Positions 14,852-41,075 of a stretch of DNA of 42,282 bases are shown here, piece by piece; within the stretch, counting starts at the first letter, position 1; every line of letters begins with the position of its first letter. The notes beneath the pieces are model-generated. The model worked only from the letters and a program-made list of their open reading frames with translations. It had not been told where the DNA came from and ran no database searches. A program made the translations under genes and the position numbers. This DNA comes from Clostridiaceae bacterium (GTDB lineage Bacteria > Bacillota > Clostridia > DSM-8532). The stretch lies in contig JAAYMA010000038.1 of assembly GCA_012521615.1 (NCBI GenBank), forward strand, positions 1 through 42,282, read 5' to 3'.

Positions 14852-16024
14852 TCAGCGGCTTTCAGATAAAGCTGAGAATAAAATAAGTAATGAAGCTGTA
14901 ATTGCAATTGATGCCATTCCTGCATAAATACTGAACAGATCGGATAAAACTCCTGCTGCAAATGGCATGAAGATTCCGCCGATATTTCCGACTGTCAATA
15001 TGGTACTTAATGCAAGAGGATATTGTTTCAAGGTGTTACCCGCTGCAGCAATTACTGTCTGGTAAATACCACCCATAAACAAGCCCAGTCCTGCTATTGC
15101 CAAAGTAATAATTGTCAGGTTTTTGGCTGAAATCATCAGCACAAAGAAGGCAAAGGAACCTGAACTTAGAATAATGAGCAGTGTCTTTGCTGATATCCTG
15201 TTTCCAATAACAGCGCAGGTAAACCTGCTTATTAAAATTGCACCCCAGAGTATCGATGCAGTAATCTGAACATAATCACTGTTTATTATTTTTGTATCAA
15301 CAAAGTACTTGACCAGCCAGCCGCTTACACCCGATTCAAAAGAATAGTAAAAAAAGAAAACTATTGTAAATATAATGAAGCTTTTATTTTTCAAAAAATC
15401 GTAGGATAAGTGCTGTTTTTTGCTTTTATCCACCTCAATTTTCGGCAGATTTGTTTTCGAAAAAAGAAGTATAGTTATAGCCGCAAATATAAGTATTATT
15501 ATAAGGGCCAGTCTCCACCCGTGATTGTCCAATAAATTATTGGAGAAAACTATAAACAGTGGAGAAACTATAGCACCCACAGCAAAAAAGCCATGTAGAA
15601 ATCCCAATGCTTTTGGGCTGGAGTTGGATACCTCATTTACCACTGCATTGTTAAAATTCGCAATCCCGCCCCGGGTCAGCCCCGAAAAAGCGAATCCCAA
15701 GAGTAAAAGCAGCGGATTTCCGGTCAGAATTATTAATGAAAGCCCCATAATCAAAAATCCATAGAATAAAGTTACTGTTTTCTTCCTTCCAAAATACAGC
15801 TGCAGTAAACCGGCAAACAGCCCTGCTATGAAATTTCCCGCCCTTGCAGAAGATATTAAAAGTCCGCTGACTGTGTGACTGAGATTGTATTCGATACTTA
15901 AAAACGGCATTATGGTATCAAGTCCAATCACAAACAGCCCATTGATTATGTAGGCAAAGTAGCATACGTTTATGACATACTTGCTGTCATTATTCAGTTC
16001 TGCATAAAATGAATTTTTCCCCAT
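14852..16024 (-). CDS. Major facilitator superfamily permease
   Basis: The 390 residues form about twelve hydrophobic helices split by a charged loop near the middle, after a helix ending ITILLFSKTNLP, as in the MFS 6+6 arrangement. A short FGRKK sequence after helix 2 fits the loop 2-3 MFS signature. The general look is of the FucP/sugar or small-metabolite group, but the substrate cannot be told. A TAGGATGA site precedes the ATG. It stands between alaS and hydG and has no obvious functional partner. Confidence 0.8.
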   Translation of the reverse strand: MGKNSFYAELNNDSKYVINVCYFAYIINGLFVIGLDTIMPFLSIEYNLSHTVSGLLISSARAGNFIAGLFAGLLQLYFGRKKTVTLFYGFLIMGLSLIILTGNPLLLLLGFAFSGLTRGGIANFNNAVVNEVSNSSPKALGFLHGFFAVGAIVSPLFIVFSNNLLDNHGWRLALIIILIFAAITILLFSKTNLPKIEVDKSKKQHLSYDFLKNKSFIIFTIVFFFYYSFESGVSGWLVKYFVDTKIINSDYVQITASILWGAILISRFTCAVIGNRISAKTLLIILSSGSFAFFVLMISAKNLTIITLAIAGLGLFMGGIYQTVIAAAGNTLKQYPLALSTILTVGNIGGIFMPFAAGVLSDLFSIYAGMASIAITASLLILFSALSESR

Positions 16025-17715: not shown

Positions 17716-18768
17716 TTAAGCCAATGCTTCAAGAGGTTTAAAATCACCTCTGTCTACAACCAGCTCATATCCAATGCTTTTCATCCTGTTTTGCAGACAC
17801 ATTCTGCATTCTGCAGCCTCTTCACCGGTACAGATCTTGCCGTTGTACAACAGATATTTATTACGTACTTCAACCGGTGAGAGATTTGGCATAACCACAT
17901 TGGCACCTGCCAGAATACCCAGTTCACGTCCTTTAGGATCAATTGTTCCCAATGCTGTCGTGGCAGGAATTAAGGCATTTGGTATCATAAGTCTTAAAAC
18001 TCCTATCAGAAACAAAGTAAGATCCAGTCTTCCCGGTGAGAAATTTTTAAACGGAGTATCTTTATGAGGAATAAAAGGACCTATTCCAATCATTTCAGGT
18101 TTTAATTCATGAATAAAAAGCAAATCTTCAGCCAGAGTTTCAAAAGTCTGAAAAGGTGAACCTACCATAAACCCGGTGCCTACCTGATAGCCAATTTTCT
18201 TGAGATTAAACAGGCATTCTTTTCTTTTATCCAATGACTGATTCTTGGTATGTAACTTATTAAAATGATCAAAATTTGCACTCTCATGTCTTAAAAGATA
18301 GCGGTCAGCCCCGGCTTCAAAATATTTAAGGTATTCATCATATGTTCTTTCACCTATGGACAATGTTATGGCACAGTCGGGAAATTCTTGTCTAATAGTG
18401 CTAATAATATCAATCATATCATCGTGCCTGTACTTTAAATCTTCCCCACCCTGCAGTACAAATGTGCGGAAACCCAGCTCATATCCTTTTTTGCAACAAT
18501 CCAGAATCTGTTCTTTGGTCAGGCGGTAGCGGTCACAATTTTTATTACTTTTTCGGATACCGCAATAAAAACAGTCATTGATACAAAAATTAGTAAACTC
18601 TATAAGTCCCCTGACATAGATTTTGTTGCCAAAAAATTTTTGAGAAATATTGCGGGCTTTATCAAAAAGATACTTGCTGACATCTTGATTAAAATTACTT
18701 AAAAGGTATATAAATTCATCTTTGGTTAGCTGATTGTTTTTTTCTAATTTATCAATAAGCTGAAACAT
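17716..18768 (-). CDS. hydE: [FeFe] hydrogenase H-cluster maturase HydE
   Basis: HydE is a radical SAM enzyme acting in synthesis of the dithiomethylamine bridge of the H-cluster, on a HydG-derived Fe-cysteine complex. CxxxCxxC is at C62, C66 and C69 within FTNFCINDCFYCGIR. Three further cysteines near 313, 321 and 324 (CTGEEAAECRMC) match the optional second cluster site of Thermotoga HydE. The 350-residue length is normal. The ATG at 18768 lies just after a GGGGAATGGG site. About 140 bases separate it from hydG, with no terminator seen. Confidence 0.94.
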   Translation of the reverse strand: MFQLIDKLEKNNQLTKDEFIYLLSNFNQDVSKYLFDKARNISQKFFGNKIYVRGLIEFTNFCINDCFYCGIRKSNKNCDRYRLTKEQILDCCKKGYELGFRTFVLQGGEDLKYRHDDMIDIISTIRQEFPDCAITLSIGERTYDEYLKYFEAGADRYLLRHESANFDHFNKLHTKNQSLDKRKECLFNLKKIGYQVGTGFMVGSPFQTFETLAEDLLFIHELKPEMIGIGPFIPHKDTPFKNFSPGRLDLTLFLIGVLRLMIPNALIPATTALGTIDPKGRELGILAGANVVMPNLSPVEVRNKYLLYNGKICTGEEAAECRMCLQNRMKSIGYELVVDRGDFKPLEALA

Positions 18769-18841: not shown

Positions 18842-19099
18842 TTATTCTTTAGTCGAGATTTTTGAATACACAGTCTTAATATTTACATTAGGAAGCATTC
18901 CGAGCTTTCCGGAAAGAGCGCTTATTACATCCTGAGGCGCATCCACAACAACGCTGATAATGGAAATCTTTCTTTTTGCATAAGGCAGTCCCATACGGCC
19001 AATAATATAATCTCCGTATTCATGTAAAATTGCGTTTAGTTTTTCAACCGAATTTTTATCTTCCACAATAATACCTATCAGAGCCACTCTGTTTTCCAT
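18842..19099 (-). CDS. Iron-only hydrogenase system regulator (TM1266-like, ACT fold)
   Basis: This 85-residue protein has a single ACT/ferredoxin-like domain with the family landmarks: RVALIGIIVEDK at the start, a GRMGLPY motif near residues 35-41, and a conserved SGKLGMLPNV near residues 62-71. The TM1266 family is found almost only next to hydE/hydG/hydF in Thermotoga and Clostridia and is called a putative regulator; its ligand is unknown. It is the first gene of the operon, behind TAGGAGGT, directly downstream of the leader terminator. Confidence 0.88.
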   Translation of the reverse strand: MENRVALIGIIVEDKNSVEKLNAILHEYGDYIIGRMGLPYAKRKISIISVVVDAPQDVISALSGKLGMLPNVNIKTVYSKISTKE

Positions 19100-19116: not shown

Positions 19117-19153
19117 ATTAAAAAATCCCTGTACCTGAAAAGGCACAAGGATT
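19117..19153 (-). terminator. Intrinsic terminator in the hydrogenase-maturation leader
   Basis: A 13-bp stem (19141-19153 with 19124-19136), a 4-nt loop and a run of Ts lie just before the ribosome site of the regulator gene, downstream of the operon promoter. This is the position of an attenuator rather than of an end-of-gene terminator. Confidence 0.8.
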
Positions 19154-19328
19154 GATATACACAAAATATTCAAAGTATTTTTCAACTTTAATTTCCTCAA
19201 TCTTTCACCTTACCAATCGGGACGGACCCTCTTGCGCTCAGGTACAATCTTCGATATTCAAATTTACAAAATATATGTGAACGGTTTGCTGCAAGATAAT
19301 AAATATCTCACAGCGCACCGGAACTTTG
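19117..19328 (-). ncRNA. Structured leader RNA of the hydrogenase maturation operon
   Basis: From the promoter the leader would run about 210 nt. A 5' hairpin built from CGG/CCG, GCTG/CAGC and AGATA/TATCT is seen at 19280-19317. The upstream segment at 19237-19247 can pair over 11 positions (two G-U) with the 3' arm of the terminator at 19129-19139. The two pairings exclude one another, the hallmark of a transcription attenuator. I do not recognise the class; T-box, lysine, SAM, TPP and c-di-GMP consensus elements are not present. Confidence 0.55.
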
Positions 19329-19333
19329 TTAAT

Positions 19334-19362
19334 ATAATAACATAGTCAATAATTAAAAACAA
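19334..19362 (-). promoter_or_regulatory. Promoter of the hydrogenase-maturation operon
   Basis: TTGTTT (19357-19362), a 17-bp spacer and TATTAT (19334-19339) on the minus strand. Confidence 0.5.
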
Positions 19363-19457: not shown

Positions 19458-20027
19458 TTAATCATCATTATCTATTAGCTGAGATACTAACCAATCCAGT
19501 TCTGATAATTTTTCACCATTCTTAACCTCTTTCCTGGATACTTCTTTTACCTCTTCATAATTTTTTGCGGGTTTCTCTGAAAAATTATCTTCTTTATTTT
19601 CCTCTTTCTTTTTTTTACTTAACCCTTCTGATGGTTTTTTGCCTGCCCCTTTTTTCTCTTTTTGACTGTGTTCTTTTGTTTGTGTTGCATCAGTTTTTTC
19701 TGTGCTGTTTTTCTCGGCTTCCTTTGATAAATTCTCGCTTATTTTTTCTTCAGGCCAGGGCTCGTGAAACTTTGCAAGGAAGGGATCTGCTTTATCTTCT
19801 GATTTTCCACTCTCAGACAGCGTCTTTGATATATCGGCCCTTTGAATTGTATATTTATCACGAATCTCATTCAGATATACAAGGTTGTTAATATCTATTC
19901 TCATATTCTCCAATATTTTATTGATAGTAAGCAGGTTGGGAGCGGTATAAAGGGCATCGATGCTTTTGCTGAGCTCATTCAATATGAAATTGATCTGTTC
20001 CTTTATATTTGTCTTATCATAAACCAT
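19458..20027 (-). CDS. Hypothetical protein with charged low-complexity tail
   Basis: This is a 189-residue protein that I do not recognise. Residues 1-65 look like a regular, partly helical domain (NIKEQINFILNELSKSIDAL) that could form a coiled coil. Residues 70-175 are a Lys/Glu/Ser-rich, Cys-free stretch likely to be unstructured. A short acidic end reads SELDWLVSQLIDNDD, which has the look of a binding peptide. There is no signal peptide. The start at 20027 follows GGAGTG and is preferred to the upstream ATG at 20102. It is downstream of the dNTPase gene and may share its transcript. Codon use resembles that of its neighbours. Confidence 0.75.
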   Translation of the reverse strand: MVYDKTNIKEQINFILNELSKSIDALYTAPNLLTINKILENMRIDINNLVYLNEIRDKYTIQRADISKTLSESGKSEDKADPFLAKFHEPWPEEKISENLSKEAEKNSTEKTDATQTKEHSQKEKKGAGKKPSEGLSKKKKEENKEDNFSEKPAKNYEEVKEVSRKEVKNGEKLSELDWLVSQLIDNDD

Positions 20028-20159
20028 AAAATCACTCCAGTCATATTGTTTTACTGGGTTAATTCTAAAGACGTAAAATTGAAATACCAAAATATAGTGC
20101 ACAAAATTTCACTTCATATAAGGTTTATGATAAGAAACCGGAACTAATGATAATAATCT

Positions 20160-40989: not shown

Positions 40990-41075
40990 TGGTGGGAGAA
41001 GGTGGATTCGAACCACCGAAGTCGATAGACAACAGATTTACAGTCTGCCCCCTTTGGCCACTTGGGTATTCTCCC
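40990..41075 (-). tRNA. tRNA-Tyr (anticodon GTA)
   Basis: The 86-nt gene has a 7-bp acceptor stem GGGAGAA/TTCTCCC, discriminator A and an encoded CCA. The anticodon loop reads CTGTAAATC with GTA. A long variable arm and a GGTTCGAATCC T-loop follow, as in bacterial class II tRNA-Tyr. Confidence 0.96.

What the first reader, a model, noticed from the sequence alone, without database searches (positions are those of the whole stretch)
19117..19362. Attenuator-type leader RNA before the [FeFe]-hydrogenase maturation operon
Between a sigma-A-like promoter and the TM1266-like regulator gene lies a ~210-nt leader that ends in a 13-bp terminator. A separate upstream segment (19237-19247) is complementary over 11 positions to the terminator 3' arm (19129-19139), so terminator and antiterminator exclude one another. 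A compound 5' hairpin precedes it. I know of no established riboswitch class tied to hydE/hydG, and the consensus elements of T-box, lysine, SAM, TPP and c-di-GMP RNAs are missing. The ligand could reflect iron, redox, SAM or one-carbon state.
Basis: partly seen in the sequence, partly recalled or inferred. Interest (0 to 1): 0.62.

Follow-up and report, generated by a model that had tools for sequence, protein, structure and literature searches.

The report
New attenuator RNA before hydrogenase-maturation genes
The window carries one copy of a conserved, apparently undescribed RNA switch that sits directly in front of the small regulator gene TM1266 and the [FeFe]-hydrogenase maturation genes in many anaerobic bacteria, and that probably decides during transcription whether these genes are made.

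Summary
The leader is real and belongs to a widespread conserved RNA family with no Rfam match. Covariance models built from relatives find, in 391 genomes of the class, 67 strong hits; 65 lie directly before TM1266, hydE or hydG. The other two are a T-box tail and a tRNA followed by a terminator. The core is a short hairpin, P2 (C-UGA-[stem]-RA-[stem-loop]-GA-[stem]-RAA-GG), followed by a linker and an intrinsic terminator. The window's 5' hairpin, P1, has a similar layout and is optional. The AAGG(C/U)... strand leaving P2 pairs with the terminator 5' arm, and this complementarity is leader-specific in 72 leaders (z=7.2, 0/2000 shuffles) and in 25 non-redundant ones (z=4.7). P2 and the antiterminator share the GG, so P2 should favour termination. 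The element follows TM1266 even where hydE is absent (TM1266 + ABC transporter operons). I propose PyrR-like feedback attenuation by TM1266 or its ligand; a small-molecule riboswitch is nearly as likely. The effector is unproven.

The parts
19334..19362 (-). promoter: -35 TTGTTT (19362-19357), extended -10 TGT-TATTAT (19342-19334); start of transcription about 19327 (inferred)
   Evidence: sequence; the same block TGTTATAATATTAACAAA in three same-genus leaders
19282..19320 (-). P1: 5' hairpin CGGU..GCUG..AGAUA/UAUCU..CAGC..ACCG, laid out like P2; optional in the family
   Evidence: MFE; a hairpin of the same layout in many relatives, absent where the promoter abuts P2 (by eye)
19207..19243 (-). 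P2: core hairpin ACC-UGA-GCG-CAA-GA-GGG-UCCGU-CCC-GA-UUG-G-UAA-GGU; proposed effector-binding, anti-antiterminator hairpin
   Evidence: model R1 hit 40.2 bits at 19246-19163; pair changes on both sides in relatives
19197..19211 (-). antiterminator strand AAGGUGAAAGAUUGA (its GG closes P2)
   Evidence: leader-specific complementarity to the terminator 5' arm in 72 leaders, z 7.2; 25 non-redundant, z 4.7
19140..19155 (-). antiterminator partner UCAAUCCUUGUGCCUU, overlapping the terminator 5' arm
   Evidence: present; 48/2000 shuffles as good; not supported across the family
19120..19153 (-). intrinsic terminator: arms 19153-19141 and 19136-19124, loop UUUC, U tract
   Evidence: a terminator in the same place in relatives
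18842..19099 (-). TM1266 family gene (TIGR03959 / PF21699), first gene of the operon; Shine-Dalgarno AGGAGG at 19114-19109
17716..18768 (-). hydE
   Evidence: TIGR03956, 580 bits
16155..17609 (-). hydG
   Evidence: TIGR03955, 912 bits

Best explanation
The leader is one member of a conserved family of transcription attenuators in front of TM1266-hydE-hydG and related operons. Shown by comparison: (1) hairpin P2 is conserved, with invariant UGA and RAAGG at its base and stems that change on both sides; (2) the strand leaving P2 (AAGG(C/U)...) is matched, leader by leader, to the 5' arm of the downstream terminator. Because the GG of that strand also closes P2, and the 5' arm also belongs to the terminator, a transcript can have either P2 + terminator (off) or the antiterminator helix (on). 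Inferred: an effector binds P2, and P1 where present, stabilises it, keeps the antiterminator strand busy and causes termination, as feedback. Inferred with less confidence: the effector is the TM1266 protein itself, perhaps loaded with a small ligand, much as PyrR controls the operon it leads. About 0.85 that it is a real attenuator working through P2/antiterminator/terminator, 0.65 that effector binding means off, and 0.4 that TM1266 is the direct effector.
For: Genome-wide specificity: model R1, 45 hits of 31.3 bits or more in 391 genomes, 43 before TM1266 (41) or hydE (2); model R2, 22 of 22 hits of 30.4 bits or more before TM1266 (17), hydE (3) or hydG (2). The two R1 exceptions are a T-box tail and a tRNA-Gly with a terminator. 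In a sample spread over the phylum the hits of 38 bits or more lie before TM1266, except one cut off by a contig end. P2 pairing at anchored positions: 0.93 vs 0.74 in shuffles (A-type), 0.65 vs 0.45 (B-type), 0/5000. Covariation score of P2 + antiterminator 0.256 vs 0.136 (A4) and 0.361 vs 0.214 (A6), 0/500, and far above all slid versions. Antiterminator: z 7.2, composition control 0/300, mismatched-arm controls near 0. The two folds are close in energy (window -37.6 vs -35.5 kcal/mol; in L080, L018, L099 and L087 the antiterminator fold is already the MFE). For TM1266 as effector: every verified site lies in a genome with TM1266, which is usually the first gene; the element also lies between TM1266 and hydE/hydG (G166, G157, G323), and precedes TM1266 operons in genomes without hydE.
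Against: No experiment. A TM1266-like domain fused to an ABC ATPase suggests a small-molecule sensor. G010 has one TM1266 but two leader subtypes. In the window alone the antiterminator helix is interrupted and not better than shuffles; its support is comparative. The direction (off on binding) rests on which nucleotides are conserved. The tests shuffle among leaders and do not model a tree; E-values are rough; part of the hits come from loci used to build the models.
Confidence: 0.6

Rival explanations
1. A metabolite- or metal-sensing riboswitch: P2 (with P1 as a second copy) is the aptamer itself, and TM1266 is only a regulated gene that may sense the same ligand.
For: Invariant unpaired purines in two internal loops of P2; a P1 of similar layout, as in tandem aptamers; different operons (H-cluster maturation, SsuA-like ABC transporter, FecCD + NifH-like) would share a ligand; G010 carries two subtypes with one TM1266.
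Against: Several leaders keep only the roughly 35-nt P2 hairpin, little for a selective aptamer; the mid-stem RA/GA loop is replaced by U-G pairs in the transporter subtype (UU/GG), so it is not an obligatory pocket; sites occur only with TM1266. No Rfam class matches.
Confidence: 0.35
2. Another protein (an iron-sulfur or H-cluster assembly protein, or a general RNA-binding antiterminator) binds P1/P2.
For: The hairpin size and layout suit a protein site; hyd genes are the commonest targets.
Against: The common denominator of the sites is TM1266, also in genomes without hydE.
Confidence: 0.15
3. A constitutive attenuator or mRNA-stability leader without a specific effector, or chance similarity of terminator leaders.
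For: In the window alone the antiterminator complementarity is not better than chance.
Against: Invariant UGA/RAAGG, leader-specific antiterminator complementarity and 65 of 67 genome-wide hits at the same genes.
Confidence: 0.08
4. One reading: the antiterminator is 19247-19237 with the terminator 3' arm.
For: 11 positions in the window; similar pairing in L087, L124, L079, L080, L197, L099, L280; it can nest with the other helix as a three-way junction.
Against: Not leader-specific over the family: z 0.3 in 25 non-redundant leaders, -0.3 in B-type.
Confidence: 0.15

Closest known systems
PyrR-controlled pyr operon leaders (Rfam RF00515; mechanism from general knowledge)
   Same: The regulator gene leads the operon; copies of the element also lie between operon genes; a 5' hairpin competes with an antiterminator; intrinsic terminator.
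   Different: No match above threshold (24.0 bits, cut-off 54); different hairpin sequence; TM1266 is unrelated to PyrR; the effector is not shown.
L10 leader (RF00557)
   Same: Best Rfam score for the window: hairpin, A-rich stretch, terminator (30.6 bits).
   Different: Below its cut-off (44) and not a ribosomal-protein gene; the match is mainly the terminator and A/U-rich sequence.
mini-ykkC (guanidine-II) tandem-hairpin riboswitch (general knowledge)
   Same: Two short similar hairpins in tandem.
   Different: The conserved letters here are in internal loops at the stem base, not in terminal loops; no Rfam match.
ANTAR-target leaders (general knowledge)
   Same: Two hairpins P1 and P2 upstream of a terminator that P2 competes with.
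   Different: No pair of conserved hexaloops: loops are UYCGU in subtype A and variable elsewhere.

Membership tests
Any Rfam 15 family (riboswitch, T-box, leader) | covariance-model score above the family's gathering cut-off | tested here: not met
   Window: only a tRNA at 40993-41075; 20 related loci: only a tRNA; the best sub-threshold hits of the leader are L10_leader 30.6 < 44 and PyrR 24.0 < 54
Intrinsic-terminator transcription attenuator (kind) | terminator hairpin + U tract between promoter and first gene | tested here: met
   relatives
Intrinsic-terminator transcription attenuator (kind) | conserved alternative pairing that excludes the terminator | tested here: met
   AAGG strand x terminator 5' arm, z 7.2 / 4.7; pair changes
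Intrinsic-terminator transcription attenuator (kind) | condition-dependent readthrough | not testable with these tools
   needs in vitro transcription or Term-seq
PyrR-type autogenous attenuation | leader scores as a PyrR binding site | tested here: not met
   24.0 bits against cut-off 54
PyrR-type autogenous attenuation (works like) | regulator gene first in the operon with the element directly before it | tested here: met
   41 of 43 R1 sites and 17 of 22 R2 sites precede TM1266
PyrR-type autogenous attenuation (works like) | regulator protein binds the leader hairpin | not testable with these tools
Riboswitch | direct small-molecule binding by the RNA | not testable with these tools
   no ligand known
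ANTAR-target leader | two hairpins with conserved hexaloops | tested here: not met
   loops are pentaloops UYCGU or variable
Leader-peptide attenuator | conserved short ORF with a Shine-Dalgarno sequence | tested here: not met
   no ATG ORF; GTG/TTG ORFs of 11-26 codons without a Shine-Dalgarno sequence, in the window only; the GTG frame at 19311 is stopped after two codons in L059

The most novel reading that the evidence does not exclude
A new class of attenuator RNA controlled by TM1266: the long-standing 'putative iron-only hydrogenase system regulator' would be an RNA-binding, ligand-sensing feedback regulator of H-cluster maturation and of related metal or transport operons, or else the RNA is a new riboswitch for the same unknown ligand.
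Probability: 0.4. Interest if true: 0.85.

Novelty: new variant of a known kind. Interest (0 to 1): 0.68.

Why it matters
How cells regulate assembly of the [FeFe]-hydrogenase H-cluster, and what TM1266 does, appear to be open questions (no functional paper was found in the library). A conserved RNA element that marks the TM1266/hydE/hydG operons across Clostridia, Negativicutes and some Desulfovibrio-like genomes gives a concrete handle: a minimal hairpin, a defined antiterminator and a candidate regulator, all testable in vitro. It also gives a genome-wide marker for TM1266 regulons, including transporter and NifH-like operons whose substrates are unknown.

Tried and rejected
Known Rfam classes: rejected. 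P2 5' strand with the terminator 5' arm as the main antiterminator: significant in A-type (z 3.5) but not in B-type (0.0) nor in non-redundant leaders (1.5), so not adopted. Leader peptide: rejected. DNA-level search for the leader: too diverged, one full-length match at 73%. A single mixed alignment of A and B types (A3) shifted the stem by one column, so two models were built. Two strong model hits elsewhere were checked and are false positives. partly used wrong sequences (alignment rows shared locus names); they were redone correctly and are not relied on. Literature: no description found; the library lacks most subscription papers, so absence is not proof.

Full report
WHAT IS THERE. The finding lies on the minus strand. 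After an extended -10 promoter (TGT-TATTAT, 19342-19334) comes a leader of about 210 nt, then a 13-bp intrinsic terminator (19153-19124), a Shine-Dalgarno sequence and TM1266 (19099-18842), hydE and hydG. The leader folds far better than shuffles (z -4.5). Rfam has no match.

RELATIVES. A DNA search in 60 relatives found one full-length match, before hydE in another genome of the genus (G010, 73%). Reading the upstream regions of TM1266 and hydE genes showed a shared core: C-UGA-[3-4 bp]-RA-[stem-loop]-GA-[3-4 bp]-RAA-GG(C/U), a linker, then a terminator whose 5' arm contains the complement of AAGG(C/U). Subtype A, that of the window, has GA-GGG-UYCGU-CCC-GA; a variant of A before transporter-linked TM1266 genes has UU/GG in place of GA/GA; subtype B has a freely varying inner stem. 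Named carriers include Sporomusa, Acetobacterium bakii, Propionispira, Clostridium yunnanense, Lutispora, Desulfosporosinus and a Desulfovibrio.

SPECIFICITY. Two covariance models were built (R1 for A; R2 for B) and run over 391 whole genomes of the class. Of 45 R1 hits with 31.3 bits or more, 41 lie upstream of TM1266 and 2 directly upstream of hydE (G010, G284); of 22 R2 hits with 30.4 bits or more, 17 lie before TM1266, 3 before hydE and 2 before hydG (positions; downstream genes). The two exceptions are a T-box tail (G285) and a tRNA-Gly followed by a terminator (G037). Eight of the 43 true R1 sites were in the model's training set under the same handle; named training loci may add a few species more. 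In 299 genomes spread over the phylum the R1 hits of 38 bits or more are the window, three new TM1266 sites and one cut off by a contig end, and the one R2 hit over 40 bits is at TM1266-hydE. Weaker hits are increasingly chance.

STRUCTURE AND SWITCH. P2: with positions fixed by sequence anchors only, its two strands pair in 0.93 of positions in subtype A (shuffled 0.74) and 0.65 in a deliberately unfiltered B set (0.45), 0 of 5000 shuffles in both. Counted on MAFFT alignments, P2 plus the antiterminator give covariation scores of 0.256 (shuffled 0.136) and 0.361 (0.214), and every slid version is far lower. Antiterminator: for 72 leaders, the strand from AAGG onward fits its own terminator 5' arm better than those of other leaders (z 7.2, 0 of 2000), also in 25 non-redundant leaders (z 4.7), and against letters shuffled within the strand (0 of 300), while the controls strand x 3' arm and upstream segment x 5' arm lie between z -0.7 and 1.8. 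Examples of matched change are AAGGC/GCCUU, AAGGU/ACCUU, AAGAU/AUCUU and AAGGG/CCCUU. The two folds are within about 0-6 kcal/mol of each other, as expected of a switch.

P1. Many leaders carry a second hairpin upstream with a similar layout of stems and internal loops; several leaders start right at P2 and lack it. This was judged by eye and folding, not by a covariation test. The RNA may therefore be built from one or two copies of one hairpin type.

GENES. Where hydE is absent (G001, G002, G003, G008), the element precedes a TM1266 gene followed by an SsuA/NMT1-like binding protein, a permease and an ATPase. G010 has both: one copy before TM1266-ABC and another before hydE. In other genomes it precedes TM1266-FecCD-ABC ATPase-hydE-NifH-like operons (L126, L128, L149; G169 similar), where the ABC ATPase of L128 bears a C-terminal TM1266-like domain. 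So TM1266, not hyd, is the common denominator.

MECHANISM. Shown (by comparison): conserved P2, conserved antiterminator, conserved terminator, and overlap of the GG of the antiterminator strand with the base of P2. Inferred: P2 stabilised by an effector means termination, because the sequence conservation (UGA, RAAGG) exceeds what plain pairing in the antiterminator would need. Inferred with less confidence: the effector is TM1266, giving autogenous feedback like PyrR. A small-molecule riboswitch is the main rival.

NOVELTY. No Rfam 15 family and no paper in the searched library describes it. The kind, a terminator-antiterminator attenuator, is well known; the RNA family and its tie to TM1266 and H-cluster maturation appear new.

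Noticed in passing
L128:1693-3069 (+); similar ORFs in L126 and L149: An ABC ATPase with a TM1266-like domain at its C-terminus (PF21699, residues 370-441, 64 bits; tested in L128), in an operon TM1266-FecCD-ABC-HydE-NifH-like; suggests that TM1266 is a small-molecule-sensing domain, as in other ATPases with C-terminal sensor domains.
   Followed up: partly
L240-L244, L252, L255, L276, L283, L293: TM1266 genes of a second subfamily head an ABC transporter operon (SsuA/NMT1-like binding protein) in genomes of which several lack hydE; the substrate is unknown.
   Followed up: partly
L245 (G169:C7:40000-47500) and L091: The TM1266 gene is followed by FecCD, ABC ATPase and NifH/NifD-like genes (G169), or directly by a NifH-like gene (L091, Megasphaera).
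   Followed up: partly
G010:C15:27853-27928 and G010:C17:6261-6324: One genome carries two leader copies of different subtypes (GA/GA before hydE, UU/GG before TM1266-ABC) but only one TM1266 gene.
   Followed up: partly
window 19458-20102 (-): A 214-aa ORF upstream of the leader without any Pfam or NCBIfam match, rich in Lys/Glu towards its end; a related ORF lies upstream of the leader in G010 (L040).
   Followed up: no
window 14852-16024 (-): An MFS transporter (MFS_1) follows hydG, and no hydF follows; same-genus relatives (L079, L080) go from hydG to alaS.
   Followed up: no
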